Positions 3,713-62,974 of a stretch of 64,000 nucleotides of DNA are shown one piece after another. The position numbers and the translations under genes were made by a program. The stretch is from Enchytraeus crypticus (Eukaryota; Annelida; Clitellata; Enchytraeida; Enchytraeidae). A model generated the notes under the pieces. It did no database searches. It was not told where the DNA came from and worked only from the letters and a program-made list of their open reading frames with translations. The stretch is from contig CAJHZI010000884.1 in assembly GCA_905160935.1 (NCBI GenBank), positions 167,501 through 231,500 on the forward strand, written 5' to 3'. The first letter of the stretch is position 1, and each line of letters begins with the position of its first letter.

Positions 3713-6666
3713 ATGTCGGATGGTTTACAGAACAATGAGATTTCAAAGGAAAGATTTTCTGACGGATTACTCTTAGATCATATGCAGGGAGTTAAGGATG
3801 CGTGCACTCTTTCTGATGGGGCTTCTGGGCCCATCGTCATGGATGAAGTACTGAAAGAATTTCTTGGTGACAAATTAGATACTCTGACCATCGAGCATCT
3901 GAAGAACAAACGACGAATTCTTGAGGAACAGAAGAAAATGTCACTTGAAGAGAACGTGCAAACCAATGTATCAAAATCTACGAAACATAAGCACAAGAAG
4001 CACAAGAGTAAGTCAAAGAAGAAGAAGAAGAATAAAGATGCTGAAAAGAAATCTAAAGTGAGAGCTTCCAGCGAAGAAAAGAGTGACAGCGAGTCAGATT
4101 TAGATAGTTCATCACAGAGAGATACAGTGAATGCTTCAATCTTGTCTAATTTAAATGGAGATAGCTGTGAGAAAGAAAAAGAAAAATTAGCCAAGGGAGA
4201 TGATATAGGCAAAGGTGATAAATCAGGTAGTACTGTTGATTTCAACATTAAATTCGAGAAAAATAAATCTCCAGAGTCGAAAATTGATCCTGTTGAAAAC
4301 TTATGCAAGAGATTGTTACCGCAAGTAGTGATTGACACAAAGGGTTCACACAAGGACAGCGCTAAAGATTCCGAGCTGAGAAGTGGCAAGGTTGATCTTG
4401 AAAGGACCAATGAGTGCGCAGCTTCTGAACAAGAGATTTCTACAGAGAAAAGTGGTTCTGATACAAAAAATAAAATAACTGATAAAAATTCAAAGATAAA
4501 TTTCTCTTCAAATAGCCAGGACCATATTTCTAAAACTGTAAGTACAGAGCACAAATCGAAAAAGTCCAAGAATTCCAGAAGGAGTCGGTCGGCTTCAAAA
4601 GATTCCTTGACTACGAATATGACAAGTAAGTCAAAGGAAAGAAAATCATCTAAAGGTCATTTGAGTGAAGCAAGACGTAGCAAAGACAAGATAAGTGCTG
4701 TGCACGATGAAGCCAGAGAAAGTAAATATGACATTGAAAAGAATGAGAGATCCCGAAGAAAGCGTGATAGAGAAAATAGTCACGAAAAATCCAGTAGAAA
4801 CAAATCCCGTGAAATATCGCATACTAAGATATCCGAATCAAACTCAAGAAAAAGCACTCAGGATTCGTACAGCAGGAAATGTGAAATTAGTAAAAAGGAA
4901 GACAGAGAATATCGAGATGAGAGAAAAAGATCTAGATATAGCAGCGATAGAAGAGATAATAAGAACGATAAAACGAGTTCAGAGGTAGCCTCAAAAATTC
5001 ACCGATCACTTGAAACCAAGTTCAGAGAGGATGATGTAGAGTTGGATAGCGATGATTCCGATTGTGTCGTTCAAGAAAATGTTTCGACTAGAGAATTTAA
5101 GAGATCTGGAAACAAGACTACATCTACGCAAATAGAAAAACCATCGGTTGAATCTAAATCTAAGTCATACAGAGGTCGCCCTAAGGATACAAATGACGAT
5201 GTTATTATGATTGACGACGATTTTAATCCACCGAAAGATCTCGAGATGTCGGAAGACAACGATCGTCTGCAGAAGCGTCTAGCCAATCTGATGCAGCGAG
5301 GTCAGGAGCTCAAGAAACATATGCTGGAGAAGTCGACAGGCGAGAGTACATCCCATGCTCTGACGAATCTGATTCAGAGAGGGCAGGAGGCGTTACTGAA
5401 AAAGAACTTTACCGATGAAACTGAGGCCGATAAGGATTTGGGTTTCGAGTTGGACAGCATTCCTCTACCTCCTTCTGTTATTCCGCTACCGGGTGAGATG
5501 TTTCCACCACCTGCGACATTTCCAGCTGAACCCCCTCCACTGCCTCCGGTCGTAGCTTCACCCCCTCCTCCCCCTCTTCCACCCTCCTTATCCTCAACAT
5601 CGGAGGCTTCGCAGACAGGATCGGCTCTGTACGACTCTTTGAACCCATCATGTGCAGCCTCGATGATGCCACAATCAGTTCCGGGTAATTTCGTTGCTTC
5701 GTCAAGTGTGTCTCAGGATACATTTAGACCCGAGGTACCTCTAGCACCGTGGCCAGTCTTGAGCATTGCGACTAACGATGACAGCACTGCTCTTCATGAA
5801 TTTAACATAGCTTCACTCATAAAGGAGTCCATGAACAGTTGTACACCAGAGATACTTCCTCCTGCTGTGTGTGCTGGAGAAATACGCCCCTGTGATGATT
5901 TTAATTCGGCACCCCCTTCTGTATTCTCTGAACTCCCTCCACCTTCTTTCATATTTTCGAACCCACCTCCTTCTCTGCAAAGTACAGTGACAGCTCCGGC
6001 TGCCGTTGCTTCAGGAACATCTCTAGAACACGATATAGTAAACGCTTCTACCGCCAGCATTAGTAGTCAAGATTCAACTGCATTCATTTCAGCGTCAGTA
6101 GCTGAACCACACCCAGCATCTCATTCTATGAATTCCGAGTTTCTTGTAGCAGGTTTACCAGGTAAATTGTCAAATTTATTCACAACAGGATCTGATAGTA
6201 GATCAGCTTCGTTAGATCCGTATGATCAAGCTTCGACTGGTTCAGATGCTTCGATTCAGAGTCAGCATCACTCAGTACCCGTTGATCCTGCTGTAGCCTG
6301 TAATCTTCCTGTCACAGCTTCAGTTTCTTTACTATCGTCATCGGGGATGTTTGCTAGATCAGGCTTTAATGTGTTTTCTGAAGGTACAACAGTCACCGCT
6401 AATACGCCGTTGATGTCTTCTAAACCTACCTCGTCCAATTTATTTGGGCCAGTTAAGAAAGCACCTCTAAAGCTCGGCATTAAGATCTCCGATACAAGTG
6501 CGGCCATCATACTGTCTGGTAACAGGGGAGGAGCCGGTAAAGTTGCAGTGGGGGCATTGACGGAGGGGGAGAAACTGAAGACTGATGGGGGAGCTTTATC
6601 CGATTCTAAGGAACAGAATGTGTTGCCATCTGAGGGTGAAATTATCAAAGAGGCTTCAGCAACAAA
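3713..6666 (+). CDS. SON: SON exon 1: large N-terminal exon
   Basis: This 2,954-nt exon encodes residues 1-984. After an acidic start, MDEVLKEFLGDKLDTL matches the conserved helix before the KHKHKKHK/KKKKK basic block of SON. Residues ~280-440 are Ser/Lys/Arg/Glu-rich and probably disordered. Two helical heptad-like segments (RLANLMQRGQELKKHM and ALTNLIQRGQEALLKK) form an internal duplication. From ~580 the sequence is Pro-rich (PPPLPP runs), then Ser/Thr/Ala-rich. The open frame runs on to TAA at 6668, but a donor (ACAAA|GTAAGC) ends the exon at 6666, so that stop is intronic. Confidence 0.92.
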
Positions 6667-9600
6667 GTAAGCCATTTTTTCCCTAAGATTGAACGTGTTA
6701 ATGAATGTGGAAACTATTGTTTAATGGATCAGTATGTTTGGGGTTCAAATCCTGGGCTCGCCCGTCACTGATATCGCTTTCGAGTGAGGAAACTGACGTT
6801 AACATTAGCTTTAGCAGTTTTAACTCAGCATCACGTTAGTTGAGTTACATCAATTGTTAATGTGTCTAGTAGAGGTTTTATTGAAACATCTACTGGTAAA
6901 TCCTACTAACTAGTTACCCAATCTGATATTTGTGAATTTTCTGAGTGTAAATTGATGATGTCAAATTTGGTCTAAAAGGAACTAAATTTAAGCTTAAGAT
7001 TAAAAGTCACTATTATTATTATTATTATTATTATTATTTTTTTTATTTTAAATTTTTACCCCGGTGTAAAGAACCTGGGGTTTGATAAAAACGATTCGAG
7101 CAATACGTGCTGAATCGCCGCCCGGCTACTCGACGTCATCAATCGGCTTAAAAGAATTGTTGAAGCAGACTGCATTAAATCTTTGCAAAGTCATGGAAAG
7201 CCTTTGCCAAAGAAAAGATGTCTCTCGCTTATCGCCGGTTTGCTCTGCAATAAGTCTGCCTATGCCATTAATAAAGTCAACTCCTTCGGGATTAATCGGG
7301 CCCATGGTTTCAATGGCCACCGGAACAACTTCATATCCTAAGGACAGATCTCGGTATTTATCCAACTTCCTAGAGGCGGCATGAACAGCAGCTCCACCGG
7401 CTGTGACTGAAGTCGTATTGAGGTAGGAGTTGGCCAATGACCGTGACGTCCCATACGGCACATTTACCGTTGCACCAGGGAACTAAAGTCATGCCGTCCG
7501 GACGCTTGCCGTCTGATCTGGACAACCCACTTGGTTCCTTAGAGGAAGGGATGCCTGCTCTCGAAAGTGCTCGCCATATTATGTCATTTAAATTGTGATG
7601 GCGAGACATTCTACCTGAGCTTCGTTTGCAGGAGAGACCGTGGAGACCTAAAGCGTCGACTTCATGACCGCAGGGGCACATGTGAGGCTCGCAAGTTTTC
7701 GCCCCTAAACGGAAACTAACAGCTACTCGAATCGCCTCATTGTCTAAAAATAGCCCACAAGAAGCAACAGGGAGAGCGTTATTATTATTATTATTATTAA
7801 CAACGAAAACTTATATAGCAGTGTCATGGCTGAACTTGGTCTTCGAGACTACTTTACAAGAAGAGTATAATTGTAATCATGAGCTGAATAGCAATTATAT
7901 TTAAATTAATATCTAAACTAGTAAAAATTTCTACATATGTGCGGAACTTTACGCTATCCAGCAACACTCATTCCAGACTTCATAATACAAAATACTCATA
8001 ATAAACTTAGATTCGTGTATAGTAAATTCACTATTAAATACACTATGTACATGTATATATGGTAGCAGATTTAATAGTTCTAGTAAGACGAATTATTAAA
8101 CTTCTGAATTAATCTGAACAAAAATTTAATCTGAAATATTGTTTCCTAATCTATATATTCTCTCTAATTCAGCCATTTTGTTGTTGAGAAAATTGATTTT
8201 ATTGTATTGTTGAAATGTCCTCATTTATTTTTTATTACTCATTTTTTTATTACTCATTGATTACTTTTATCGGCTTGGGGGTTTAGCTACTTAACATAGC
8301 GTTAAATATATTCTGTCATTCAAAATGTTAGTTTAACTCTACTTGTGGTCTGTTGTTGATGTTGACACCAGAATCTTGATGCTTTAGAACTCCTCAATTA
8401 CAATATAGGAGTGGCTGAAAATCTATGATGTGCATAAGATCTTTTAATTAAACTAATAATTGGCATATAATAATGAATGTCTAAATAACTGAATGTATCG
8501 AGAGCGCGTTTACTAATGTCACGAAGTTTTAAATGAACGTTCTTGAGGTTGAGGTTTTATTTGCAAACTACATTGTTAGTTTTATTACTCATTTTTTCAT
8601 TAATTTAAACGTGAGAGTTTTTATTATTTTCTTTTGTTTTATCCTAAAGCGATATCAGTGATGGGTTTGGCTAGGATCCTACAGTGGTCATTTAGAAGAG
8701 TTGACTATACTTTGAAGCTTCTGAACTTACATGAATAGCTTAAGAATATATACAGTATTGGATGTATATTTTTATGTATTTTACAATTTATTTTAATTCT
8801 TTTTAAAATTTGCTAAATTTATACGTGTACTTATATGATGGAATTTATTTAGTTTGTTCTGATATTTAATTATTATTCAATATATTTATATTAATATTTA
8901 GTTTTCTTAAATCTCTTATATTTTCTGTTGAATGTCAAGCTGTTGTAAATGTGACAGAAGTATTAAGGTTGAAGAGAAGCAGGACGACAAACATTCTGAC
9001 TGCCTCGATAGTGAGGTAACAGAAAGAACTGGTTCTGCCTCAGAGGATCACAGGCGTTCTTCGAAAGAGAGAAAACTCTCGAACAGTCGTGAGAGGTCTG
9101 ATCGCCGTAGTGACAGCAGAAGATCCACATCTAAAGAGAAAAGAGAGGGAAAACGTTCTCGATCGCGAGATGATAAAAAATCAGCGGAGAAAAAGAGATC
9201 AAACTCACGAGACAGAAAGAGATCTGCTGAGAAGAAGAAATCAGTGGAGACAAGGAGATCGAGATCCAGAGGTAGGGAAAGGTCAAGAGATAGAAAGAGA
9301 TCTAGAAGTAGAAAGAGATCCGAGTCGCGAGACAGAAAAGCAAAGACCGGAGAAAAGTCTGAGAGACGTCGATCATCTTCAAGAGATCGCAAGCAAAGTA
9401 GAGCGGGTCGTAGGGCGAGCAGAGATAGGTCAGGGTCACGAAGGAAAGAGAGGTCAGCGTCCCGTAGAAAAGAGAGATCTCCTAAGAGGAAAGAGAGATC
9501 TTCATCTAAGAGAAGAGATAGATCTCGCTCGCGGAGAAAAGAAGACACGAAGAGAAGAGATAGGTCGAGATCTCGCAGGAGATCAAGGAATCGCTCGGTG

Positions 9601-12600
9601 TCTCGCGGAGGTCGCTCGAGGAACAGGAGAAGGAGCGGCTCTAGGGGAGGAGGGAGAGAGAAAGGGAGGAAGTCTTCTCGTGATAGGTTGGGCTTATTTA
9701 CGTTCTTAACAGTTGCTTTATCTTCGGTTTTAATTTTTTATTTAATCTTTCTCTCTATTTTTCTTTCTGTCTTTATTAGTATTTCTTTTTTAAAGTTTCT
9801 CTAGATTACAATTTTTTTTAAATGGTATTTTGTGTTTAGTTCTCTTTGTATCTACCTAACCTTCGTTAATCTGGTTTGATGTATACTGGTTAAGTCCATG
9901 ACACCATATGCAGCTTAATCTTTACTTTGAAATGGCTCATGATAGATTGAAGGTATTAGCACACGGTCTATCAAAGATTATGTTAAATCAACCTGAAAGC
10001 TGCGAGTTCGTTAGTGTGTTATAGAGTCAATGTGATGCACAAATATTGTGATTAAATTAACTTTCCGTGTTGATTGATTGATTGACTGCATGACTAATTA
10101 ATTGTTTAACGATTAATAAATGGAATTGACTGACATCTCTGCCTTACATCATACATGATTCTGAGTGCTGAATTATATCAATACACTAAATCAATATGTT
10201 AACTCAATACTGTTAAATCAATGTGCTAATCAATACGTTAAATCAGTATACTAAATCAATACATCAAATCAGAATCGTTAAATCGTTAACTCAATACCAT
10301 TAAATGAATGCTTTAAAGCGATGCTTTAAATCAATAAATGAATTATTGTTATTATTGATGACTGATTGAATTTTGTCTGTGCGAATCAGAATGAGATCAA
10401 GGTCTCCTCGACGGAAAGAAGAGAAGAAGGAAGAAGATGACGGTCTTAAGATAGACAAAGCCAAACTGAGAGAAATTGCCATGTAAGCAACTTCAGCCAT
10501 TGGACCTGTTCCTACTCGTTCAGTATCTTATAAAACATATAGAATTGGGTCTTCTTTTATATTCTCATATTCACTTGCTCATTCAATAATTAACAAATGT
10601 TTTACATCATGTTTAATGCTGTACTAATTTAAATGATGTGAGGTTCTGCTGAATGTCTGAAGGTTTATTTGTTTTAATGGTAGGCTTAAAACTTAAGATT
10701 GCTGAAGAATTCACTGCGGTGTTCTGAGAGACAAGACTCAACCTCTGTAATCTATCCATCAGCTACAGGCCTAATGTAATCTATCCATCAGCTACAGGCC
10801 TAATGTAATCTATCCATCAGTTACAGGCCTAATGTAATCTATCCATCAGCTACATGACTAATGTAATCTATCCATCAGCTACATGACTAATGTAATCTAT
10901 CCATCAGCTACATGACTAATGTAATCTATTCATCAGCTACATGACTAATGGACTATATATAGCTATTTGTGCATATCCAATCACTCCTAATGGGCTGGGT
11001 GTGATCAATTCTAACTGACATGTTAAGGGTTACACAGGATTACTAAAAATTATTCTCTCATACAATCTAAGTTCTGCTTCAGACGTTTTTAAACGTAGCA
11101 CTTATCATAAATATGTAAATTGATTGAAATTTAAAGTAAATTGATCAAGGGAGTTGACTGGGGCAATTGATTGACTGATTGATCGGTTGATTTATTGAAT
11201 GATTGATTGCTTTGCAGTAAGAACGTATTTGGTCACATGCAGTCAACGAGTGCAGTGTTTGAGGTAAAGCCTGAGGAGCTTCTCTCACTACCCTCTCAAC
11301 CCCCGCCCCAGCCCAAGAAAGAGAGCACTGCCACGGGAAAGTCCGTTCAGGAATTGACAAGTGAGAATTTTAACTATTTTACTTCTCTATTTTGATCAGA
11401 ATTTTATTTTCTATTTTGATCAGAACTTTACTTTCTATTTTGATCAGAACTTTACTTTCTATTTTGATCAGAACTTTACTTTCTATTTTGATCAGAATTT
11501 TATTTGAAAGTTTTTGTATATGTGAGAAGTCGTATCTTCAGTTGAATTGTTAAAAATTGATAATCTAGCTTTAATCGTGAGAGAGAGTACATATATTTCT
11601 ATAGATACTCGACCGTGGATTAGTATGTGCGGGGTTCAAATTCTGGGCTCGCCCGTCACTGACATCGCTTTCGTTTGAGAACAATGACGAAAACCTTAGG
11701 TTTACCAGCTTTTAGTGCTTACACAGTATCACCCGCACTAGGCTTTCAGGGGATATCGATATCCTGTATGATACGAGTCCTATAAACAAATGCTAAAAAG
11801 TAGAAAACGTTCTAGAAGAATGGCAAACAGAAAGACTATTATAGTTAGTTACAATGACTTAAAAATTATTAATAAATTAATTATCTAAACATATAGTTTT
11901 AAGTTTCAGTTGGGCTTACAACGTACTGTCGATCTAAAAATTGTTCCGTTCATTTTGTGTGATTTTGATGTCGATAGATTTCTGTAAGAAGATTCAGGAG
12001 CAGCCGGGCGGCTCGAGTTCACACAGCTCTGCTTGGACCAACAACAACAACAACAATGCTGACGATGACGATGATGAGGGCGGAGACTTCAGTCTGAAGA
12101 ATGTTCTGAAGAAAGTGCGGGAGGTGTCGTCTGCTGGCTTTGTCTTTCAGCCACCGGTGAGAAGTTCTTATGTGTCATCTAGAGTGCCACCTGAGGGGCA
12201 AATGTTCATGTATCATAGAAGGTTCTTATGTGTCATCTAGAGCTCTAAAAGCTGGTAAAGCTAAGGTTAACGCCAGTTTCCTCACTCGAAAGTGATGTCA
12301 GTGACGGGCAAGCCCAGGAAATCTTCATAGTTTCTACCATATAATTGATGATGAAAGCCATGATTTTTCCGAAGATTAAATGGTAATTAATCCATCTAAC
12401 TGAGGAAGACAACGGGAAACCACCTCAGAAGCCATACTTTTCCCAAGCTAGAGGCTACATATGGTATGGATAAGGCATAGAGTTCGTGAAGGGATTAACT
12501 TGTTGATCTAAGGAGTGCTCTTATGGAGCGAGAAAACAGACTTTGAGTATGAATATGTACCTTGAACCTGCCACTTGGCAGTGCACTAAGAGAGAGAGAG

Positions 12601-15600
12601 AGGGGGGGCCATCTGAAGGGCAGATGTTCCTGTATTGTTTATTTTGTGTATTTTGTACCGTTCACTTCGGTACAAAATCAGTTATGCAAAATCGATGAGA
12701 TTAGTGAACCATGTTCTCAAATCTAAATAAATTATATGCAATAAATTGTGATCACTTGTGTAAAGGCTCTGTGCATTTATTCTGTAAAAGCATTGCTTTT
12801 GGTTTAACTGAGTGATGAGTAATCATAGTCTGTGGTAGTGGTTTACTGTGATTTAGTACCTATTCAAGAGAAATGGTGCTTCAGATTGTGCAAATTAATC
12901 TTTCAATTGTGTAGGTGTTTATGTATTACTATAACTTCTATGAACAATATAATCTTTTTCAATATTCTCTTAGCAACTTAAGACATACATTATTAGACAT
13001 ACATTATTAGACATACATTATTAGACATACATTATTAGAGTAAAATTGTTTGAGCATTAGATATTTTCTATTTTAAAAATTTGATAATAATCTATTTTTA
13101 TTTAGAAAATTTTGCAGTTGTTTGTCGTATTGTTTAATATATATATATATTTATGATTTAAAATCCTATTTCGAACGCGTAGTTTTGCCATTGTTTGTTG
13201 CATCGCATGAGCAATTGATCTGTTAAAAATTGAATTAGCCATAAAAATAGGAGTCTTTAAAGTAGGCTCGAAGATCGGTTTCATTCTTGGCTGAACGCAG
13301 AAAGTGTTTAAAGTTCAGTAATATTTTAATCTGAAACAAGACAATATTTTTATATTAACTCTTCCATCTTTGAGTGGGTACTGATAAATTATAATTTATA
13401 AACTGACTATTATAATATAAACCTACTGATAATTATCAACATTACTGACGTTATAATTATATATATATATATATATATATAACTTTAGATAAGTAATTTA
13501 TTGTTTTTTTTAAAATTCTGATTCATAATTTTATATTACTCACGACTATGTGTTATTCTCAGCCGGTGCGTCAGATAGCGCAGGCGGGTGGTTTTCAGAA
13601 GCCGGTGAACGAGGAGCTGACGATGATGTTTCCCGTCTCCAGCGGCTCAGATCATCAGAAGAAAGAACTGGTACAAGAGGCACCTTCCAACGAGAGCTTA
13701 CCTCAAGTAGGAGTCTTTTGAGACAATATATTGTGTTAGATAGTGATATAATTCATTCAGTTCTCGTTCAGTCATTAGTTCAAAAGTTCATTTGTCCAAT
13801 GTCTTCAGCATCATATCATTCATAGCAGCATTTCTTATCGCTTTTCTTATAATAATAAAAATCATCATCATCATCTTCCCTTAAATCCCAGTTTAACCAG
13901 GGTCGGGATACGAATAGACTCTCTCCAGTCCTCCCTGTCTCACACCATATCACCAGTCAATCCCCTATTTTGCATGTCCTTCTTAGTTACCGCATCCCAA
14001 GTCAATTGTGGTCTACCTCTCCCAAGCTTAGCATCCAGTTCTTCCCTCCAAACTCTCTTTACTACATCCTCATCTGCCTTTCTCACAATATGCCCATACC
14101 ATCTCAATCTCGACTGAGCCAGCCTATCCCCAATCCCCTCAACATTCAAATTCATCCTCACATATTCATTTTCCATTCTGTCCGTCCTAGTTCTTCCACA
14201 CATTAGACGCAACATTCTCATTTCTGCCACAGGCAAACTCTGCAAATGTTCTCTTTTTAGTGCCCAACATTCCGAACCATACATCATTACTGGCATCACA
14301 GAACTATAAAATTTGCCTTTCAGTCTTAGTGGGATTCTCCTATCACACAACACTCCAGTAGCAGCCCTCCACTTTGCCCATCCAGCCTGAATCCTGCTAG
14401 TAACCTCTTTTTCCAACTCCCCAGTATCCTCTATTACAGATCCCAAATACTTAAAATCTGTTACCTTCTTTAGCTCCACACCCTGACTTATTACTCTATC
14501 TCCGTTTATCATCTCAACCTTCCATCTACTCTCTAAATGCTCCGTTTTTTCCTTATTCACCCTCAGTCCTTTACTTTCCAATGCCTCTCTCACATTTCCA
14601 ACATCTCGCTTACTTTCTCCACAGTGTCTCCTACTATCACCAGATCATCAGGAAATAGCATGCACCAAGGGGCCTCCTCAACAACTCCCTTAAGCAACTC
14701 ATCTATAATCAATATAAATAAATATGGACTTAAGGCTGATCCTTGATGTACCCCGATCTTCACATCAAAACTCTCAGATAGTCCACTCTCACACTGGTCT
14801 TCACCCTGCTGTACATATCTTTGATTGACTCAACATACCTCCTGTTCACTTTCCTCTACTGCAAAACTTCCCACACCAGTTCTCTCGGAACCCTATCATA
14901 GGCCTTTTCGAGATCCACAAATACCATCTGTATCTTCTTCCTCTCACTCCTTTTCTTCTCCATGAATTGCCTCAACATAAATATCGGCTCTGTTGTCGAC
15001 CTTCCAGGTATAAACCCAAACTGGTTGCCCTTAATGTTTCTTATAATAATAATAATAATAATAATAATAAAGGTTTAACGTCCGTTTCCTCATACAAGGA
15101 TGATGTCAGGGACGTCATTGTCAACATTTCATAGTAGCATTTCATATCAGCATTTCTTTTCAACATTTCATAGCAGCATTTCTTATCTGCTTAGTGATAA
15201 TAGCCACTGTGTCACATTCCACCAACCTGTCTTATCAGATTTGGGTAATAATGCACATCTCGGGTGAAGATTATGATAGTAGATATGTAAAAATTAAGTA
15301 AAGGAAATAAAGTACAATAAAGTAAAGAATGAGATTTGATATAGATTCAGGTAACTGTATTAGCTGAGAAACAGAGTTTGTAGTTTGCATGCACTAAAAT
15401 GTTGTATGAAACATGTTTTTATATCATATAATATATATATCTATATATATATATATATATATATCTATATATATGTATCATATATCATAACATATTTCAT
15501 ATCAGATTTTAAATGATCAGGGTTTAAATGTTTACATAAAAAATTTGTTCATTGTACTGTATTTAGGGAGAAGCTACACCGGCAGATGATAAAGTGTTTG

Positions 15601-18600
15601 ACGTAGGCCTTAGTGACGTAAGTGATTTTCTCTTTGTTTTTTTTTTTGTTTTTTTTCTTTATTTTCTGCTTTGTTTAGAGAACTAAAGTCTGATCTTCAG
15701 TATTGGTAAAATTGTTCCTATGAGACAATTAATACTGGTAATTAATTAATTAAAATTAATTATATATCAGTAATTAAATAATTAATTCATAATTAAGTAT
15801 ATACCAATAATTAATTAATTCATAATTAATTATAACTAATTGTCGATACTTATCAGGCACACCTGAAAACGCAACAGAATGATGACTTGTGATTCTAAAC
15901 AACTCTATCTTTTCTATTGTAATGTCTGATATTTTTAAGTTTAAAATTTCAGGCAAATATTTTTCTTTTGTTGGAGTTATGATAATTTTTTCTAGACTCT
16001 ACGTGCACATTCAGCATTTCGTTGTGACTGATTGAAAAGACTGCAGCAGCTGAATGTATGCGAAAGAGTCAACTATGCTGATACAGCCAGTGTCATATAC
16101 TTGACTAAAATGTACGCGATGGGTGCTAAAAATTACTGTAACACGGTAAATGCGCGTTAAAGTTATACACAAACTTTGACAGTTCTGCGCATGAAAAATT
16201 GTAGTTTAGCGAAGCATACTTGAATACCATTTGAGTACGTGTCACTATGCTCAAAAGTGCATCTGAGTATAATGAAACAGAGAGCTCTCTTTGGTCAGTT
16301 AAATCAGCAAGAGCTCTTTAGTTATCTTACGAGCATATTGTAGGTATGAACTAGGTTCTGTCACGTAGTAGAGAAAGCATAGCTGACATATTGTTTATTG
16401 CTGAAACCAGTGGCGATGTCGGTAAGATATTCGACCCCAGATCAGTATGTGCAGGTGCAAATGCTGTGCTCGCCCGTCATTGACATCGCCTTCGAGTTAG
16501 GAAACTGACATTAACATTAGCTTTACCAGCTTTTATGTGTTTATTAAACATAAACCTACGACATTAACAAATAGACTTAATTAGCTGTTTACGTATGCAC
16601 AGCCGATGGAGATAAGCAAGTTTGTGAGCGAGAGAGCCGAGGCTCTACGTAAGCTCTCGGCTGATCCTAATGATGCCGAGGCACTTGCGGTCATGCAGAG
16701 AATTCAACAAAAGGTTTACATCTCGTTTGTCTCTAAATCTCGACAATGATTTCATGTTGATGAATTGTCAGTATGACGTCCCTGACATCATCCTTGTATG
16801 AGGAAACAGACGTTAAACCTTCATTATTATTATTATTTATTTATTTATTGCATCATTTATTAGTATTACTCGAAACTATGAACTAGTAAATCATGACGTG
16901 AAATGGTGCTTATAATTATTATTATAATGCTTATAATTATTATAATTATTTCTTCTATTTGTGAGACCTATTGAACAAGGGGGCTCTAATTAATAAAAAA
17001 CAAATGAAGGTTTAACGTCCGTTTCCTCATTCAAGGATGATGTCAGGGACACTATCCTTGTTTGATGTCAGGGAGATCATCGTTGCTTGAATATGTGGAA
17101 TTTTGTTGAGAGACTACCACTCTACTTTGCTCTACTGCACCTTTACTATGCCTCTTGTGGCTCTAGTTTTGAATTTAAAGGAATCCTTTATTTTTATCTT
17201 TAAATTTAATTTTAATTAATTAATACATTAATGCATTTTTCTGTGTGCTTTATTATAAAATAACATACTGTGTATTCTAGATGAATGTGCTGTATTATAA
17301 AATAACATACTGTGTATTCTAGATGAATATGCTGTATTATAAAATAACATATTGTGTAATATAGATGAATATGCTGTATTATAAAATAACATACTGTGTA
17401 TTCTAGATGAAGGAATGGGTGGCAGCAAAGCAGAAGCCGGGCCAGTTTACTGGATCCACTAAAGTGCAGACGTTGTCTGCTAAACAGCTCGGAGGCAATG
17501 ATCCCAGGGCCTGGGTTAAAAAGGTAACGTCGTCGCAATACTTGTGTGCTGCAGCCATTGATTGCTCTCTGTTGTGAAACTGTACTGACTGTGTGTGCAT
17601 CCAAAGGTGATATCCGGTACTTAAGTCATTAATTTATAAGATCCTCACTTAGAAACGTAAAAAATACTTGAAGAAAGTCTGTGGTTGGAAGTTTAGTAGT
17701 TTTTAATGGCACAGTAGTGGATGAAATTTCTGCGGAGTAAATGTAGAGGAACTCTCGCTGATGAACTCTCGTTGCTTTGCTACTTTCTTTGGTGACAGCT
17801 GTCTTTTTTCTTCTTTATCTTCTTTGTATTGAGTATAGTCTCATATTTTTTAGTTGTAGTCTTCAAAACAAAATTTTGTCATTTAAGGTAGAACTGCTTT
17901 TAAAACGCATGATTTAAAAGTTCTATTTTGGTTACTTTTAAAAGTAATCAAAGCAGCAAATCGGCGTATTTGCTGATTTTTTCAGTTATTGATATTATTT
18001 TTTAATATACAAACATTTATTACTTCTGTACTTTTTTGTAGTCTACCCTTTTATTGATTATCCATTTCACTGGATATCTCCAATGGATGCACAGATATAT
18101 ATTTGAAACTTCACAGGTTCTAACAACTCCGTTGGCATTGAAGGTGTGTTTACAAGCGATTGCATCAGTATTGGGAGACTACAACTGGTTTGGACTGGTT
18201 CAGACTGGTTGAGCAGAATTATGCAAACATAACATCTGCGCTGATAATAATTATATATGAAGATGATTGCCATGTATGATTATTGTCTGTGTGGATGTTA
18301 TGCTTGGATAACTTCTCTCAGTGTAGTATTGTGCAAGGCACCTATGTATTTTTGAGTATGCCAGTGAGTGTGTGTTTATGTATGTCTGTGTGTGTGAGTA
18401 TGTGTGGGCTAGCGGACGAGTTTATTTTAATGTGCTTGCATACATGCGCGTGTATGATTGTGACAGTGAATGCATGCCTCTGCTAATGTTTAGTATGTTG
18501 AATGAATGGTTCTTTGATATGACAGTAAAAAGGGCAATCAATTAAAGACCTGATAAGCTGAAGAAGCTTTGATTGTCTTCATTGATTGGTCTGGCAATTC

Positions 18601-21600
18601 AACTATAAACAGGACCTTGATAGTGGGGGGTGGGGTTATCTAAGGATCAAAAAATTACACTTATTTAAGATAAAAAGTCTCAGTTCTGAGATCACATTTT
18701 CTCAGATCATTTGAACTAAGGCTTATGCCTCGCATCATATAAAAATTTACAATTTAAAATTATGGTTCCTGTGAAATCTCCATTGATGATGTGCCAAAAG
18801 GGTAGTTTTTCAATTCAGCCTGTGTAAATGTGCCGTGTTAGGTGCACATTTACACAGTGCCGGTCCTGTTTTAGCTGACTCGCTGCGTCTGATGGTAAAC
18901 TGACACCGCTCGACTGCGACTAGCCGCAACGGTTAATGATGATGATGTGAACCTGCCACGAGAGACCTGCGGGTAGTTAGAGTAAGTATGTGCAACAGTT
19001 TGCATCATTTTATCATTGTAGCTTCGGCGAATATTGTACTGTATAAAATGATATAGTGTGATGAATACACTGTGATTAGAGTGTTGCTATGGATGATTTT
19101 ACCTGCTAGATATTTACTCTCCTGCTATACGGTAGAGTGAAGTTTGGAGATCATTCTCGAGTTTTGCTGTATCAATATGTATATATGCCTGATCTCTAAA
19201 CTGATTTTGGCAAACGTTAGCACCGTAACCTTCGTACTCTCTTTCACACCGCCAATGACTGGATCTCGCATACACTCACACACACGTAAAGACAACTTCT
19301 CAACGGTCAAATTGAGAGAGAGATTGAGAGGGAGAGAGAGAGTTAAGTGACATCAAAGAGAATATGAAATCATAATTTGATTATAAACATTCCCTTACAT
19401 TATGATCCATCTGTATGACCATGTTACAACCAATGCCATCTAGCTGATCATAATACGAAACTTAAATGCTTTATCAACCATTTAACGAGTAGCGCTCTTC
19501 TGCTGGAAGTTTCTTCAGTAGTAGTCTTAACAACTGACGTTCTGATGTAATGTGTGGTTGTAGGACACATTTCTGAAGGCTAAGCCCGTGATGGGGGGCA
19601 TAGGTAAGGCCCTGCTGCAGAGGATGGGCTGGAAGGAGGGGGAGGGGTTAGGCAAGGACAAGGCTGGCATGCTCACCCCTATAGCTGTCGATATCAAGTT
19701 CGATAGGAAAGGTTTGACACTTTTGTCTGGTCGTTGTTTTATGTGGTACAGTATGCATATGAGACCGACATCTTAGATAGTCCAAGAATTTAGGAAAACA
19801 AATGTTCAATCTATCGATCAATAAGCAATTTAATGTCTGGTTCCTCGCCATTAAGCAATGTCAGGGGCGTCTCTTGCAGACTCTGCATCAACAGGCACCA
19901 ACTCACCATACTATGACGACTGAGTATTCAAAGACCACTGGAGAAAGCAAGATAAATAACAGTGCAGGTCCAATATCCCAGCAATAGTGTCAGAATACTG
20001 ACCTCTGGCCCAGGGAGATGAGTTTTAACTTGCACAGGAAAATAGTAATATTACAATTACTACATAGAAGATCTTGTGACAGAGAACTCCACAATGTTGG
20101 AACAGAAAAAGTGTAGGTGCATCTGCAAATTGGTATAATGTCATAACTCTCTTTTGAAGTCAGTAATTGTTTATTCAATCAAACATAGCTAAATTTAATT
20201 GATTGATTGATTGATTATTTCAGGGCTGATTTCAGCGAGTGAAAGCAAAGAGAAGGCAGAACAGCTGCAGCAGCTGCAGCAACAGCGACTCATGCAGCAA
20301 CAAATGCAGCAGCGTATGGCTAACCTGGGACAGCTATTGGGGGGTATGATAGCGGGACAGGTGGGGGGCATGAGGCCCCCCATCCTCTCCTCACCCATGT
20401 CCTTCCCAGGTCTGTCCCCCGCTGCTGCAGCGGCTGCAGCCGTGGCGGCTCACACACTGGCTAAGGGCGGCCAAGATCTCGCAGGTCTGTGATCGTCATT
20501 ACTAATAATTATATTATGTATATAATTACTAATGTATAATACTAATATATAACTACTTATATGTAATAATTATATATTACTAGTAATTTTATATTAAGTA
20601 ATGTCCACGAACTGAGACCAGCGCGCTAACCTCCATTCCGCTAGTATCCAGATTTTGGCTCGCACCGTTTCTGGACCACCTACATGCATCTCATAGGTTT
20701 GCTTTGGTTCCATAGTGCTCGATGTTGTTAGGGACGGAAGCACTTTAATCGTGTTGTTGTTATTGTTGTTATACTGTATATTAATATTATAATTGAGTAT
20801 TACAATTAGCCATCGACCTTAGTTAAACTGGAATTCAAGCGAAGATGATGATTGTTATTGGCGACCAACATCAGAAGTAGAATTGGGTTGGTGGGCTCCT
20901 AGACTCCAGAAATAGCTACAAAATTGTCTAATCTCAACCCTAGTTAGACTGGAATCGTCACAGAAGATGACAATGGCAAACCTACAAACTAAAAAATTCT
21001 GATGACAAGTTTATTCTTTGAGATGCCGTGTTTGTATTTGATATTGTCATGGATGATGATGGCAGTTTGTTGTTGTTGTTGTCATAGATGATGATTGTTG
21101 TACAGGTAAGCACCATGTGACTAAGACACACTGTGATAGTACTTGATGTTGTCATAGATGATGATTGTTGTACAGGTAAGCACCCTGTGACTAAGACACA
21201 CTGTGATAGTACTTGATGTTGTCATAAATGATGATTGTTGTACAGGTAAGCACCCTGTGACTAAGAGACGCTGTGATACTACTTGATGTTGTCATAGATG
21301 ATGATTGTTGTACAGGTAAGCACCCTGTTACTAAGACACACTGTGATATTACTTGATGTTGTCATGGATGATGATTGTTGTACAGGTAAGTACCCTGTGA
21401 CTAAGAGACTCTGTGATACTACTTGATGTTGTCATAGATGATGATTGTTGTACAGGTAAGCACCCTGTGACTAAGAGACTGTGATAGTACTTGATGTTGT
21501 CATAGATGATGATTGTTGTACAGGTAAGCACCCTGTGACTGCGCTGAGTGAACTGTGCACTAAGAGACGCTGGGCCACGCCTTCTTTCATTCTCGTTCAA

Positions 21601-21857
21601 GATGGCGGACCCGCGAACAACAGACTCTTCAAGTTTAAGGTCTGTCTAGTAGATTGTCTAGATAACATTTTACTTCTATTTTTTCTACTTTCATTTCTGA
21701 GGGAAACTGAAGATGAGCCCTTCTTTAAACAAAGACTGTAGTTTTGTGAATGGAAAGTTGGGTGATATTCGTGTTACCCTGTTATGTTCAGATTGTCGAA
21801 GAATAGACCTACCTTAGAGAGGGAGGGGGAGAGAGAGGTAAAGAGGGAGAGAGATTG

Positions 21858-21916
<59 letters not shown>

Positions 21917-22160
21917 TTGTTTAATTGTATTTATTGTGTAAAGGATTGGCTATATTTTATCTAATTAAGATTTATTTATTTGTCAGAAGTTTTAAAGTCA
22001 TGACTTTGTATCGCAGGTGGTTGTTAACGGCATAGAGTACCTTCCGTCCATGTCCAGCTCAACGAAGAAACAAGCCAAGAGTGAGGCAGCTGCTGCCTGT
22101 CTACAGGCATTCGGAATACTGCCTCACAATATCGCCCCATCAAGCGCGCTTCAGCCTTAG
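3713..22160 (+). CDS. SON: SON, RS-rich nuclear-speckle splicing cofactor (13 coding exons)
   Basis: SON scaffolds nuclear speckles and helps spliceosomes use weak splice sites. Coding exons: 3713-6666, 8958-9686, 10390-10482, 11218-11360, 11978-12156, 13563-13706, 15567-15617, 16603-16713, 17407-17523, 19564-19711, 20224-20484, 21524-21639, 22017-22160. They join in frame to 1,730 codons including the stop. The order is diagnostic: N-terminal lysine-rich block (KHKHKKHKSKSKKKKK), RS region (residues ~985-1228), an ELT-x2-CKKI block, FPVSSGSDHQKKE, PGQFTGST, a G-patch (~1514-1556) and a C-terminal dsRBD (~1645-1722). The long octapeptide-type repeats of mammalian SON are absent. ATG 3713 is the first in-frame Met after an acceptor-like site at 3678. 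Poly(A) signals AATAAA lie at 22792 and 22858. The family is certain; individual splice sites are inferred from GT/AG and phase. Confidence 0.94.
6728..6824 (+). mobile_element. SINE-1 copy in SON intron 1
   Basis: The copy contains GGGGTTCAAATCCTGGGC (B box), CTCGCCCGTCACTGA and GAGTGAGGAAACTGACGTTA, matching the family consensus. Its tRNA-like head is truncated. Confidence 0.8.
7011..7790 (-). mobile_element. LINE fragment with restriction-like endonuclease C-terminus
   Basis: On the minus strand two overlapping frames (7681-7370 and 7461-7126) cover the end of a retrotransposon ORF with one frameshift between them. The first has a C-x-C-x7-H-x4-C knuckle (CPCGHEVDALGLHGLSC), then RHHNLNDII, then DGKRPDGMTLVPW and VWDVTV, which is the layout of the Zn-knuckle plus RPD/D nuclease core of R2-superclade LINEs. 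The second continues to RLSMTLQRFNAVCF and the terminus NSFKPIDDVE. (ATT)n arrays flank it on both sides. Copies of the same C-terminus occur at 54545-54990. It is a dead fragment with no reverse-transcriptase part. Confidence 0.65.
7791..8957. other. SON intron 1, remainder
   Basis: AT-rich intron sequence with a short SINE-1 remnant at about 8644-8680 (AAAGCGATATCAGTGATGGG). I see nothing else in it. Confidence 0.5.
8958..9686 (+). CDS. SON: SON exon 2: RS domain
   Basis: This exon encodes residues ~985-1228, almost entirely Arg-Ser, Arg-Asp and Lys-Arg dipeptides (for example RSRSRDDKKSAEKKRS, RRDRSRSRRRSRNRS). It is the phosphorylatable RS region that targets SON to speckles. The acceptor is at 8957 (GTGACAG|A, completing a Lys codon) and the donor at 9686 (GATAG|GTTGGG). 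The frame stays open to 9804 but turns into a hydrophobic stretch that is intron read-through, not a membrane segment. Confidence 0.88.
9687..11217. other. SON introns 2 and 3 with exon 3 between
   Basis: Intron 2 (9687-10389) carries degenerate ATCAATA/GTTAAATCA repeats at 10170-10300. Exon 3 (10390-10482) encodes the end of the RS region and the conserved helix LKIDKAKLREIA. Intron 3 (10483-11217) holds a 29-bp minisatellite (10746-10950) and a GATT-rich tract that runs into the exon 4 acceptor. Confidence 0.75.
10746..10950 (+). repeat. 29-bp minisatellite in SON intron 3
   Basis: About seven units contain TAATGTAATCTATCCATCAG. The unit ends change from CTACAGGCC to CTACATGAC midway along the array, which shows stepwise spread of a variant. 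Confidence 0.9.
11218..11360 (+). CDS. SON: SON exon 4
   Basis: This exon encodes KNVFGHMQST through SVQELT, a conserved linker with a short proline-rich stretch (SLPSQPPPQPKK). Acceptor CTTTGCAG; donor GACAA|GTGAGA. A 24-bp array (11394-11500, unit ending TATTTTGATCAG) starts about 33 bases after the donor. Confidence 0.85.
11361..11977. other. SON intron 4
   Basis: Five units of a 24-bp repeat ending TTTTGATCAG (11394-11500) are followed by a SINE-1 copy (11604-11725, + orientation, with GGGGTTCAAATTCTGGGC) and AT-rich sequence. Confidence 0.75.
11978..12156 (+). CDS. SON: SON exon 5
   Basis: This exon encodes NFCKKIQEQPGG (aligning with the ELT-x2-CKxI block of SON), an Asn-Ala-Asp acidic run and SAGFVFQPP. 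The acceptor at 11977 (TGTCGATAG) was chosen because it alone preserves phase with exon 4; the later AG at 11988 would shift the frame. Confidence 0.82.
12244..12605. mobile_element. SINE-1 fragment (-) joined to GA-tailed repeat (+)
   Basis: 12244-12326 is a reversed SINE-1 piece ending inside the CCCAGGA motif. It is fused to a GA-tailed element (12327-12605) with CTAACTGAGGAAGACAACGG, GGAGTGCTCTTATGGAGCG and CTGCCACTTGGCAGTGCACT before an (AG)n run. The same element recurs at 24000, 50585, 53400 and, reversed, at 54155. Confidence 0.75.
12606..13562. other. SON intron 5, remainder
   Basis: A 10-bp stem (12651-12660 with 12668-12677, TTTTGTACCG) is followed by AT-rich sequence, four copies of GACATACATTATTA (12980-13040) and (TA)n at 13137-13150 and 13460-13480. 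I see no other feature. Confidence 0.6.
13563..13706 (+). CDS. SON: SON exon 6
   Basis: This exon encodes PVRQIAQAGGFQKPV, then MMFPVSSGSDHQKKE, a motif shared with vertebrate SON. The acceptor is TTATTCTCAG and the donor CTCAA|GTAGGA, with phase 0 on both sides. Confidence 0.85.
13863..15035 (-). mobile_element. RTE-like LINE, 3' half, degenerate
   Basis: The minus strand encodes the end of a non-LTR reverse transcriptase: FIPGRSTTEPIFMLRQFMEK and VFVDLEKAYDRVPRELVWEV (RT core), then an LF-P-DD-LVIV motif in which the usual Ala of FADD is Pro, then 14593-13940 open for 217 codons ([50 protein letters not shown]). Stops and frameshifts lie between the blocks, so it is inactive. It sits in SON intron 6 in antisense orientation. 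The clade call is from memory of similar mollusc-type elements. Confidence 0.75.
15036..15566. other. SON intron 6, 3' part
   Basis: A CR1/L2-like 3' tail with (AAT)n (15040-15120, reversed) is followed by AT-rich sequence with a (TA)n run at 15428-15475. Confidence 0.6.
15567..15617 (+). CDS. SON: SON exon 7 (51 nt)
   Basis: A 17-codon exon encodes GEATPADDKVFDVGLSD between TGTATTTAG and GTAAGTG. Its acidic VF-D-LSD sequence precedes the PMEISKFVSERA helix, as in vertebrate SON. It is too short to stand out as an ORF. Confidence 0.8.
15618..16602. other. SON intron 7
   Basis: It opens with a long T run and TTAATTAAT-type repeats (15735-15835). SINE-1 lies at 16406-16536 in + orientation with its tRNA-like head preserved (GTGGCGATGTCGGTAAGAT). 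Nothing else is recognised. Confidence 0.65.
16603..16713 (+). CDS. SON: SON exon 8
   Basis: Thirty-seven codons encode a charged helix beginning PMEISKFVSERAEALRK and ending VMQRIQQK, aligning with the SERALAQKRLSE...LNRAQE helix of SON. Acceptor GTATGCACAG, donor AAAAG|GTTTAC. Confidence 0.85.
16714..17238. other. SON intron 8 before the splice-site array
   Basis: Two CR1/L2-like 3' tails face each other: 16770-16835 (+, ending GACGTTAAACC then (TTA)n) and 16990-17070 (-, AAGGTTTAACGTCCG then GATGATGTCAGG). The rest is AT-rich. Confidence 0.6.
17239..17406 (+). repeat. 42-bp tandem array ending at SON exon 9 acceptor
   Basis: Four units at 42-bp spacing each end in a 3' splice-site sequence (TGTGTATTCTAG, one variant TGTGTAATATAG), with AG at 17280, 17322, 17364 and 17406. 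The last is the acceptor of exon 9. Each copy is followed by ATGAA, the first five bases of the exon. Confidence 0.9.
17407..17523 (+). CDS. SON: SON exon 9
   Basis: This exon encodes MKEWVAAKQKPGQFTGST, then KVQTLSAKQLGGNDPRAWVKK, the conserved PGQFTGST and AWxKK elements just before the G-patch. Donor AAAAAG|GTAACG; phase 0. Confidence 0.9.
17524..19563. other. SON intron 9
   Basis: Two kilobases without a recognised gene or transposon. It contains GT-rich sequence (18360-18410), a stem-loop at 18821-18856 (13-bp arms TGTGTAAATGTGC, 10-nt loop) and a short (GA)n at 19312-19343. Confidence 0.55.
19564..19711 (+). CDS. SON: SON exon 10: G-patch
   Basis: This exon encodes DTFLKAKPVMGGIGKALLQR, then MGWKEGEGLGKDKAG, a textbook G-patch (G-x2-LL-x-MGW-x-EGEGLGK). 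G-patch proteins bind and stimulate DEAH-box helicases; in SON this domain supports splicing activity. Acceptor GGTTGTAG; donor GGAAAG|GTTTGA leaving phase 1. Confidence 0.95.
19712..20223. other. SON intron 10
   Basis: No transposon was recognised. It ends with five TTGATTGATT-type units (20199-20217) directly before the TTTCAG acceptor. Confidence 0.6.
20224..20484 (+). CDS. SON: SON exon 11: Gln- and Ala-rich linker
   Basis: Residues ~1557-1644 are a Gln/Met-rich coiled-coil-like run (QLQQLQQQRLMQQQMQQRM), a Gly/Met segment (LGGMIAGQVGGMRPP) and a polyalanine run, ending KGGQDLAG just before the dsRBD. The polyalanine and CAG-rich codons make it repeat-prone. Donor GCAG|GTCTGT. Confidence 0.88.
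20485..21080. other. SON intron 11 before the splice-site array
   Basis: AT-rich sequence with TAATTATATA repeats at 20500-20600, GTT repeats at 20750-20775 and a short RTE 3'-end remnant near 20810-20850. Nothing else is recognised. Confidence 0.5.
21081..21540 (+). repeat. 70-bp tandem array of 3' splice sites before SON exon 12
   Basis: Seven units each carry TTGTTGTACAG followed by GTAAG. The AG ends at 21105, 21175, 21245, 21315, 21385, 21455 and 21523 (spacing 70, last 68). The seventh is the true acceptor of exon 12. Each decoy repeats exon codons (GTAAGCACCCTGTGACT) and then runs to an in-frame TGA. Confidence 0.92.
21524..21639 (+). CDS. SON: SON exon 12: dsRBD, first half
   Basis: This exon encodes GKHPVTALSELCTKRRW, then PSFILVQDGGP and LFKFK: helix 1 and strands 1-2 of the double-stranded-RNA-binding domain of SON. 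The exon itself starts with GTAAGC, so joining it to exon 11 (ending GCAG) recreates a strong 5' splice-site sequence at the junction. Confidence 0.93.
21640..22016. other. SON intron 12
   Basis: Dominated by a (GA)n microsatellite at 21815-21915. Confidence 0.7.
22017..22160 (+). CDS. SON: SON exon 13: dsRBD second half and C-terminus
   Basis: This exon encodes VVVNGIEYLPSMSSSTKKQA, then KSEAAAACLQAFGILPHN. The KKQAK-x2-AA-x-CLQ motif is the RNA-binding helix 2 of dsRBDs. TAG at 22158-22160. Confidence 0.93.
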   Translation: MVVNGIEYLPSMSSSTKKQAKSEAAAACLQAFGILPHNIAPSSALQP

Positions 22161-38700: not shown

Positions 38701-40114
38701 GAACGAAATGATCATCAACCGAATGTCCTCTCTGACGTTGGTTAAGATAATACTATCTGCATCAACTTCATCATCTTCCCTTCCATTCCTGTTTAAATAG
38801 GGGCGGGATACGAATAGACCTTCTCCAGTCCTCTCTGTCCCACATCATATACTCAGTCAATCCCTATCTTTCATATCCTACTTTAAATCACCGCATCCCA
38901 CGTCAGTTGAGGTCTACCTCTCTCTAGAATAACATCCATCTCTTCCTTCCAAACTATCTTTACTACATCCTCGTCTGCCTTTCTCACAATATGCCCATAC
39001 CATCTCAATCTCAACCAAGCCGTCATAATAGCCCTAATCCCCTCAACACTCAAATTCATCCTCACATAGTCATTTTCCATTCTGTCCTTCCTAGTTTTAT
39101 CACAGATTAGGCGCAACATTTTAATTTCTGCCATATGCAAACCCTGCAAATGTTTCCTTTTTAGTGCCCAACACTCCAAACCAAACATCATTACTGGCCA
39201 TAACACAGAACTATAAAATTGCCTTTCAGTCCTAGTGAGATTCTCCTATCACACAACACTCCACTAGCTGCGCTTCACTTTGCACATCCAGCCTGAATCC
39301 TACTAGTAACCTCCTTTTACAACTCCTTATTATCCTCTATTACAGACCCCAAATACTTAAAATCTGTTACCTTCCTTAGCTCTACACCCTGATTTATTAC
39401 TCTGTTTATCATCTCACCTTTCAATCTACTCTCCAAATGCTCTATTTTTTCCTTTCCTTATTCACCCTCAGTCCTTTACTTTCCAATGCCTCTCTCACAT
39501 TTTCCAACATCTCGCTTACTTTCTCCACAGTGTCTCCTACTATCACCAGATCATCTGCAAATAGCAGGCACCATGGGGCCTCCTTAACAACTCCCTTTTA
39601 AGCAATTTATCCATAATCTAAATAAATAAATATGGACTTAAGGCCGTTCCCTGATGTACCCAGATCTTCACCTAAAAACTATTCAAGTGTAAACTCTCCA
39701 CTCTCACACGAGTCCTGACATATCTTTCATTATCTCCTGTTCACATTCCTCTGGAGTTAAAATCTCTCTCTTTCCCTCTCCCTCTCTCTCTCTCTTTCCA
39801 TCTCCCTTCTCTCTCTCTCTATCCCTCTGTCTCATTGTTTATATTGCCTGTACAAGTCATAAACTATTCCAACCAATTTATCCTCAGATTTTCTTTTAAC
39901 CTTTAAAAACAAATGTTATTAAATAAGCCTTTGTCTGTCTACCACTGCACTTTTTTCCGCACATTCTTCATTATCTTGTATATTTCAATATTCAATAACA
40001 TACCCAGCGGTACAATAGGACAACAAACAAAATATGAGCTGATAACAGTATCTATTAGCAGACCTACTATACAAAAACAATAAGAATTATAGAATAACAA
40101 ACCAATAAGAATAT

Positions 40115-43804: not shown

Positions 43805-62974
<19,170 letters not shown>

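What the first reader, a model, noticed from the sequence alone, without database searches (positions are those of the whole stretch)
21081..21640. Seven tandem 3' splice sites, each a recursive-splicing-like CAG|GTAAG, before the SON dsRBD exon
Seven 70-bp units carry TTGTTGTACAG|GTAAG; the seventh is the real exon 12 acceptor. Each is both an acceptor and a consensus donor, the arrangement of a ratchet (recursive) splice site. Because exon 11 ends GCAG, splicing to any copy rebuilds GCAG|GTAAG. If a decoy is retained, the frame GKHxVTK... meets an in-frame TGA about a dozen codons later, deleting the dsRBD. An array that lets a splicing cofactor make its own truncated transcript would be a natural feedback switch; that role is inference.
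Basis: partly seen in the sequence, partly recalled or inferred. Interest (0 to 1): 0.78.

Follow-up and report, generated by a model that had tools for sequence, protein, structure and literature searches.

The report
Repeated splice acceptors before an exon
A stretch of DNA holding the end of an intron and the first letters of the next exon is repeated seven times in a row in an animal's SON gene; the same kind of copying was found at about one in ten sampled exons of this genome, so it looks like tolerated repeat growth that offers a natural test of how cells choose between identical splice sites, rather than a switch built for SON.

Summary
Seven identical TTGTTGTACAG|GTAAG sites (spacing 70, last 68) precede the dsRBD exon of an intact, single-copy SON gene; the 16-mer occurs nowhere else in the 524-Mb genome. 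The interpretation changes. Each unit is 42 nt of intron end plus 28 nt of the exon itself (GTAAGCACCCTGTGACT + AAGAGACGCTG, an in-frame 21-nt deletion apart), so GTAAG in the decoys is copied coding sequence (Gly-Lys), not an evolved donor. SON has a second acceptor array (exon at 17407, four copies) that rebuilds no donor. Of 101 sampled WD40 and RRM exons, 10 (95% interval 5-18%) have 1-5 upstream copies of the exon start; one of the ten exons starts with GT. Candidate acceptor AGs carry tandem copies about as often as distant AGs (9.3% vs 8.2%). The array is best read as a splice-junction minisatellite, one of a genome-wide class, tolerated because the exon-proximal copy wins (inferred). 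Recursive use is possible by sequence: the rebuilt CAG|GTAAGC is the strongest donor at any SON junction. It is untested, as no RNA was available. A SON feedback switch has no support beyond the decoys' stop codons, which the non-ratchet array shares.

The parts
3713..22160 (+). SON gene, coding part: 11 coding exons, 1681 aa from ATG to stop, RS-rich N-terminal part, G-patch, C-terminal dsRBD
   Evidence: Gene model in frame without internal stops; Pfam G-patch 5.9e-15 and dsrm 9.9e-12 on the C-terminal 222 aa; the four C-terminal exons match once in the genome, two weak hits elsewhere on C655. The name SON rests on architecture and recall; the two RS-rich N-terminal exons gave no Pfam hit.
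20224..20484 (+).
21038..21065 (+). Degenerate unit-like stretch upstream of the array (TTGATATTGTCATGGATGATGATGGCAG)
   Evidence: Read from the sequence; its relation to the unit was not tested
21073..21540 (+). Tandem array, period 70, 6.7 copies; unit = 28 nt exon-derived start + 42 nt intron 3' end
21106..21523 (+). Six decoy units; decoy exon starts at 21106, 21176, 21246, 21316, 21386, 21456
21524..21639 (+). Authentic coding exon E10 (116 nt; GKHPVTALSELCTKRRW..., first half of the dsRBD), starts GTAAGC, ends AAG|GTCTGT
21562..21572 (+). AAGAGACGCTG in E10, present exactly in unit 3 at 21263 (the only two occurrences on the + strand of the window)
22017..22160 (+). Last coding exon E11, second half of the dsRBD; if E10 were skipped it would read GGC-stop
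17246..17411 (+). Second acceptor array in SON: period 42, 4.0 copies, decoy exon starts 17281, 17323, 17365 (the last with a changed site, AATATAG), authentic 17407; no donor rebuilt (ATGAA)
17407..17523 (+). Coding exon E7 (MKEWVAAKQKPGQFTG...), 117 nt

Best explanation
A splice-junction minisatellite. A segment spanning the last 42 nt or so of the intron and the start of the dsRBD exon was tandemly duplicated into the intron; a 21-nt in-frame deletion between two ACT triplets of the exon copy gave the 70-nt unit, which was amplified to six decoys plus the authentic site (anatomy shown; order of events inferred). The same happened at SON exon E7 and at about a tenth of sampled exons, so it is a property of this genome (shown for the sample). 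The authentic, exon-proximal acceptor makes the main mRNA because only it is followed by the whole exon close to its donor, i.e. exon sequence and exon definition decide between otherwise identical sites (inferred). Occasional decoy use would give stops 155-493 nt upstream of the last junction, expected to trigger NMD (stop positions shown, NMD inferred). Because the exon happens to begin GTAAG, a decoy splice here also rebuilds a strong donor and could be re-spliced, which would make errors at this array correctable (possible, not shown). The array is tolerated rather than selected as a switch.
For: Exon-derived part of the unit: 17 + 11 nt identical to E10 around a 21-nt gap. The 16-mer and a 140-base piece are found only at SON. 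Second SON array without donor. Exons sampled by domain, not by array: copies of the acceptor side and exon start at 6 of 61 WD40 and 4 of 40 RRM exons (read by eye). Candidate acceptor AGs with an upstream tandem copy 36 of 386, distant AGs 428 of 5205. SON's 2 of 10 acceptors fit that rate (binomial P 0.26). Arrays of period at least 20 and 2.5 copies cover 11.1% of the window. No clear excess conservation of the site columns (P 0.08). Mirror donor arrays at ends of open frames: L043, L051, L074, L076, L077.
Against: Within SON, two arrays on acceptors is more than random placement gives if arrays may hold at most 20 exonic bases (P 0.0055 to 0.00015 by array threshold; 0.13 to 0.02 without that rule, post hoc). 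Array coverage in the 200 nt upstream of WD40 matches is raised (18.5% against 9.4% and 14.2% further out, n = 60; one-sided P 0.09 for period 20 or more, 0.04 for 30 or more), so acceptors may be somewhat favoured. The RRM result is uneven: 4 of the first 20 exons, 0 of the next 20 (P 0.12 for 0 of 20 at the pooled rate). All seven sites are perfect. The CAGGTAAG triple pattern has 232 hits against 69 for its reverse, not normalised for single-site frequency. No RNA shows which acceptor is used.
Confidence: 0.76

Rival explanations
1. Recursive (ratchet) splicing: the intron is removed in steps from copy to copy, each step rebuilding CAG|GTAAGC; each unit is a 70-nt RS-exon whose downstream donor is the next copy.
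For: Rebuilt donor -11.0 kcal/mol against -6.4 (E9) and -4.9 (E10). Most Drosophila RS sites are followed by a further 5' splice site less than 100 nt downstream (PMC6224609, section 15 read); here one lies at 70 nt. Strong RS-5'ss can outcompete the downstream donor in human reporters (PMC6224609, passages). Recursive splicing has been reported over a broad range of human intron lengths (PMC10156609, passages), so a 1-kb intron does not exclude it.
Against: GTAAG is inherited coding sequence. Nine of the ten sampled acceptor arrays and the E7 array do not abut a GT. The intron is only 1039 nt; Drosophila ratchet points sit mostly in long introns (PMC8605326, passage), and in human introns under 1000 nt lariats favoured conventional over recursive splicing (PMC10156609, passage). 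The seventh copy has the same donor, so an unchecked ratchet would skip E10.
Confidence: 0.14
2. Feedback switch: SON level sets the choice between decoys (poison, NMD) and the authentic acceptor, or skipping of E10 (stable truncated SON).
For: All six decoys and E10 skipping would remove the dsRBD. Splicing factors often use poison exons (recalled).
Against: The E7 decoys stop in frame too, and other genes carry the same kind of array. No conservation or RNA evidence; the paper searches showed no report of SON autoregulation of this kind in their listings.
Confidence: 0.06
3. Assembly artefact: the repeat number is inflated by misassembly.
For: Tandem arrays are prone to this; no reads could be checked.
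Against: Units differ by substitutions and a 2-nt deletion (9 variable columns of 70), and similar arrays lie on other contigs.
Confidence: 0.04

Closest known systems
Internal tandem repeats at human exon-intron boundaries (PMC2812944; passages read)
   Same: Minisatellites (on average 30-bp units) at exon-intron boundaries that alter splicing; 27 intron modifications in genes of segmental duplications.
   Different: There the repeats vary between recent paralogues and the exon-intron structure changes; here the sampled genes appear to keep their structure, and 10 of 101 sampled exons carry such copies.
Annotated RS-exons (PMC6224609; passages and section 15 read)
   Same: E10 starts GTAAGC after an exon ending CAG, rebuilding a donor stronger than its own downstream donor.
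   Different: No RNA or EJC test here; six further copies of the site precede it.
[quoted passage not shown] passages read)
   Same: Local tandem duplication of an intron-exon junction; each unit here runs GTAAG...CAG, i.e. is a potential 70-nt intron.
   Different: No new intron with an exon between copies; the units are back to back.
Minisatellite with multiple splice donor sites in the interferon-induced gene 6-16/IFI6 (recalled; papers holding that phrase seen only in the listing)
   Same: A minisatellite supplying repeated splice sites.
   Different: Donors, shorter units (recalled).
Drosophila intronic ratchet points (PMC8605326, passages)
   Same: Acceptor and donor in tandem.
   Different: Those are well conserved and mostly in long introns; here exon-derived, in a 1-kb intron, conservation unknown.

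Membership tests
Recursive splice site / ratchet point | Acceptor abutted to a donor (AG|GT) | tested here: met
   Seven CAG|GTAAG sites
Recursive splice site / ratchet point | Partial splicing intermediates, lariats or saw-tooth nascent coverage | not testable with these tools
   No RNA data held
Recursive splice site / ratchet point | Long intron (typical of Drosophila ratchet points, not strictly defining) | tested here: inconclusive
   Intron 20485-21523 is 1039 nt; human data show a broad range of lengths with a preference for conventional lariats below 1000 nt
Annotated RS-exon | Exon start rebuilds a 5' splice site at the exon junction as strong as real donors | tested here: met
   CAG|GTAAGC -11.0 kcal/mol; ten native SON donors -4.1 to -8.3. 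U1 duplex energy was used, not MaxEntScan as in PMC6224609
Annotated RS-exon | Skipping after EJC depletion | not testable with these tools
   Needs RNA
Minisatellite across an exon-intron boundary | Tandem array whose unit holds intron and exon sequence | tested here: met
   Unit holds 28 nt matching E10 plus intron end
Minisatellite across an exon-intron boundary | Copy-number variation between individuals or species | not testable with these tools
   One assembly; the tool says it has no relatives here
SON | RS-rich protein with G-patch followed by C-terminal dsRBD | tested here: met
   (RS-rich part read by eye)

The most novel reading that the evidence does not exclude
In this animal lineage the spliceosome reads only the exon-proximal member of runs of identical acceptors so reliably that acceptor duplications drift like neutral DNA at about a tenth of exons; and at SON, where the exon begins GTAAG, mis-spliced decoys are re-spliced copy by copy, an error-correcting run of recursive sites.
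Probability: 0.17. Interest if true: 0.8.

Novelty: new variant of a known kind. Interest (0 to 1): 0.5.

Why it matters
Duplicated splice sites have been built by hand to ask how the spliceosome chooses between identical sites (Reed and Maniatis 1986; title seen in a reference list, content recalled). This genome appears to offer many natural versions in conserved genes: the local site sequence is nearly constant while distance, exon length and copy number vary, so RNA-seq alone could show how far local sequence matters. The two arrays in SON, one that rebuilds a donor and one that does not, are a matched pair for asking whether recursive splicing corrects errors. A high rate of tolerated acceptor duplication would also feed intron-boundary shifts and intron gain.

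Tried and rejected
Rejected: a SON-specific kind of array (similar arrays in other genes). Not shown: purifying selection on the sites (P 0.08 that all 16 site columns are invariant by chance; longest invariant run P 0.28). Rejected: a dispersed repeat as source of the unit (one locus only). Sought in vain: a SON paralogue or haplotig for comparison. Rfam: nothing at gathering score. ARAGORN: no tRNA. Paper searches on minisatellite donors, recursive splicing, SON splicing, repeat acceptors, intron gain and repeats at exon-intron boundaries listed no report of arrays like these; the library holds open-licence papers only, and most listed papers were seen as listing alone. The first WD40 tables read minus-strand loci in the wrong direction; corrected, and only corrected numbers are used. 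The CAGGTGAG replicate did not complete and single-site counts were not made, so one search is not normalised. Gene names for sampled exons, where I had them in notes (WDR3-, WDR12-, WDR26-, CDC40-, hnRNP-, tra2-, synaptotagmin-like and so on), are recalled and come from no call. Acceptors of sampled exons are inferred from reading frame and sequence, without cDNA.

Sampling: WD40: the 30 best loci plus 37 of its further hits in the 20 places, picked down the list (a hit in a very long open frame, C387, passed over); 67 hits, 1 exact duplicate dropped, 5 near-duplicates dropped, leaving 61 of the 150 listed. RRM: 40 of the 150 hits, in list order among those starting at model position 1-3 with open frame of at most 110 aa and no stop; one at a contig end (C134) was passed over and one that qualified (C197) was overlooked. 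The first 20 were fetched first, the next 20 after I had seen hits among them; they gave 4 of 20 and 0 of 20. For L061 the script's candidate AG lies inside the copied exon; the acceptor named here (TTGCAG|GTATGC) was placed by eye. Of the arrays behind I read 10: the first five contigs in its list (2 of 5 at a coding boundary by eye) and five I chose because they looked coding (4 of 5).

Full report
OBSERVATION. The 16-mer TTGTTGTACAGGTAAG is exact at seven places, spaced five times 70 and once 68. TRF reports 21073-21540, period 70, 6.7 copies. Whole genome: seven exact occurrences, all here, reversed control none; a 140-base piece finds only this array. The genome held is 524 Mb in 802 contigs.

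GENE. Joining the exons gives an open frame of 1681 aa in 11 coding exons. The C-terminal 222 aa match G-patch and double-stranded-RNA-binding models. Those exons match once in the genome; two weak hits lie on another contig.

WHAT THE UNIT IS. After the acceptor each unit reads GTAAGCACCCTGTGACT-AAGAGACGCTG (or a variant) and then returns to intron sequence. E10 reads GTAAGCACCCTGTGACT-GCGCTGAGTGAACTGTGCACT-AAGAGACGCTG. The 11-mer after the gap occurs twice on this strand of the window, in unit 3 and in E10. The gap is 21 nt (seven codons) between two ACT triplets. So the first 28 nt of a decoy are a copied, internally deleted exon start, and GTAAG there is the Gly-Lys of the dsRBD exon. This accounts for the acceptor|donor layout without selection for a donor.

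STRENGTHS. A duplex with the U1 5' end (9-mer recalled) gives -11.0 kcal/mol for the rebuilt CAG|GTAAGC (-11.6 for copy 5), against -6.4 for the native E9 donor and -4.9 for the E10 donor; the other nine rebuilt SON junctions range from +1.5 to -5.9 and the ten native donors from -4.1 to -8.3. By sequence E10 is therefore an RS-exon of the kind described for human genes (PMC6224609; passages and section 15). The copies are identical from 18 bases before to 5 bases after the junction, and their pyrimidine content (0.45) is at the low end of SON's own acceptors (0.45-0.64). The site itself thus cannot tell copy 7 from the decoys. One base, A at -30 in copies 2-7, is T in copy 1; it could be a branch point, which was not tested.

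CONSEQUENCES. Decoys 1-5 end at codon 14, decoy 6 at codon 10, with the stop 155-493 nt before the last junction. Skipping E10 from the rebuilt donor gives GGC-stop in the last exon. The first class is expected to be NMD-sensitive, the second not (NMD rule recalled).

A SECOND ARRAY IN SON. 17246-17411 is a 42-bp array of four copies whose last copy is the real acceptor of E7. Its three decoys run into an in-frame stop after 13 codons; one has a changed site (AATATAG). Since the exon starts ATGAA no donor is rebuilt. It is an internal control: a tandem acceptor array can persist in SON without any ratchet.

GENOME-WIDE. I sampled exons found by Pfam models: WD40 (stretches; 61 exons after removing duplicates) and RRM (stretches; 40 exons). 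I asked whether a 30-nt window around an open-frame AG before or just inside the match recurs within 340 nt upstream with AG kept. Result: 6 of 61 and 4 of 40, the latter 4 of the first 20 and 0 of the next 20; pooled 10 of 101, 95% interval 4.9-17.5%. All ten were read by eye: L014, L062, L063, L064, L088, L092, L094, L024, L061, L098. In each, exon-start sequence is copied upstream and the copy falls back into other sequence. Only L061 starts with GT (acceptor placed by eye). Candidate AGs with a copy: 36 of 386; AGs 500-1400 nt from WD40 matches: 428 of 5205. A looser control by 130-nt blocks, any AG and no frame filter, gave 87 of 605. So acceptors carry such copies about as often as other AGs, and SON's 2 of 10 is unremarkable (P 0.26). 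Candidate donor GTs of the WD40 exons carry downstream copies less often (8 of 365, in 5 of 61 exons, against 913 of 6488 distant GTs), though coding GTs dilute that figure. Donor arrays do exist: in L043, L051, L074, L076 and L077 copies of CAG|GTAAG run on from the end of an open frame, and L078 looks like a second acceptor array on an exon starting GTAAG (by eye, no domain search). Four other arrays read (L046, L048, L053, L075) showed no coding boundary at the array.

RESULTS THE OTHER WAY. Array coverage just upstream of WD40 matches is raised (18.5% against 9.4% upstream and 14.2% downstream further out; P 0.09, or 0.04 with period 30 or more; n = 60). Within SON, random placement rarely puts two arrays on acceptors (P 0.0055 to 0.00015, or 0.13 to 0.02 without the exon rule, post hoc). 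The CAGGTAAG triple pattern has 232 hits against 69 for its reverse, unnormalised and with overlapping hits. These leave room for some preference for splice sites. One possible cause is the repeat TTGATTGA, found within 150 nt upstream of 19 of 81 exons (61 WD40 and the first 20 RRM) against 47 of 736 distant 150-mers (P 4.6e-6); the antisense form was in 0 of 81 against 12 of 736. TTGAT fits the loose metazoan branch-point consensus (recalled), so intron ends may be built from an unstable repeat.

MECHANISM. Best supported: tandem growth of an intron-exon junction, kept because the exon-proximal acceptor, followed by the full exon and its donor, out-competes copies followed by 28 nt of exon and then intron. 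Duplicated-site experiments found that exon sequence and proximity matter (Reed and Maniatis 1986; title seen, content recalled). Recursion at this array is possible and could even mend errors; recursive splicing is reported over many human intron lengths, with a preference for conventional lariats in introns under 1000 nt (PMC10156609, passages). But the identical donor at copy 7 must be ignored for E10 to be kept, which in human cells is work of the exon junction complex (PMC6224609).

NOVELTY. Tandem repeats at exon-intron boundaries are known (PMC2812944, passages). What seems new is the frequency, the apparently preserved gene structure and the ratchet/non-ratchet pair in one gene. The searches named in Tried and rejected listed no report of this.

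Noticed in passing
17246-17411: Second tandem acceptor array in SON, 42 bp x 4, last copy is the real acceptor of exon E7; decoys stop in frame.
   Followed up: yes
59817-59991: 62-bp array (2.8 copies) at the end of an open frame (58910-59929), three copies holding CAG|GTATTG: perhaps a donor array of another gene. A SAM-domain stretch lies at 61557-61829; whether it is the same gene is not known.
   Followed up: partly
L014, L024, L061 (hit 776447), L062 (hit 105304), L063 (hit 82559), L064 (hit 114122), L088, L092, L094, L098: Acceptor plus exon-start copies at other exons of this genome.
   Followed up: yes
L043, L051, L074, L076, L077: Mirror-image donor arrays by eye (end of an open frame plus GTAAG copied onward), 12 CAGGTAAG copies in L074.
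   Followed up: partly
sampled introns; window E9 acceptor 20190-20223: TTGATTGA lies within 150 nt upstream of 19 of 81 exons against 47 of 736 distant 150-mers; antisense 0 of 81 against 12 of 736. Perhaps repeated branch-point-like motifs.
   Followed up: partly
L078 (G000:C271:296400-297500): Apparently another exon beginning GTAAG with upstream CAG|GTAAG copies, a close analogue of the SON array.
   Followed up: partly
13940-14829 minus, 38883-39245 minus, 42444-43274 minus, 44379-44920 plus: Open frames that look like pieces of non-LTR retrotransposon reverse transcriptase by eye; the two searched (13940-14644, 42444-43274) gave no Pfam family.
   Followed up: no
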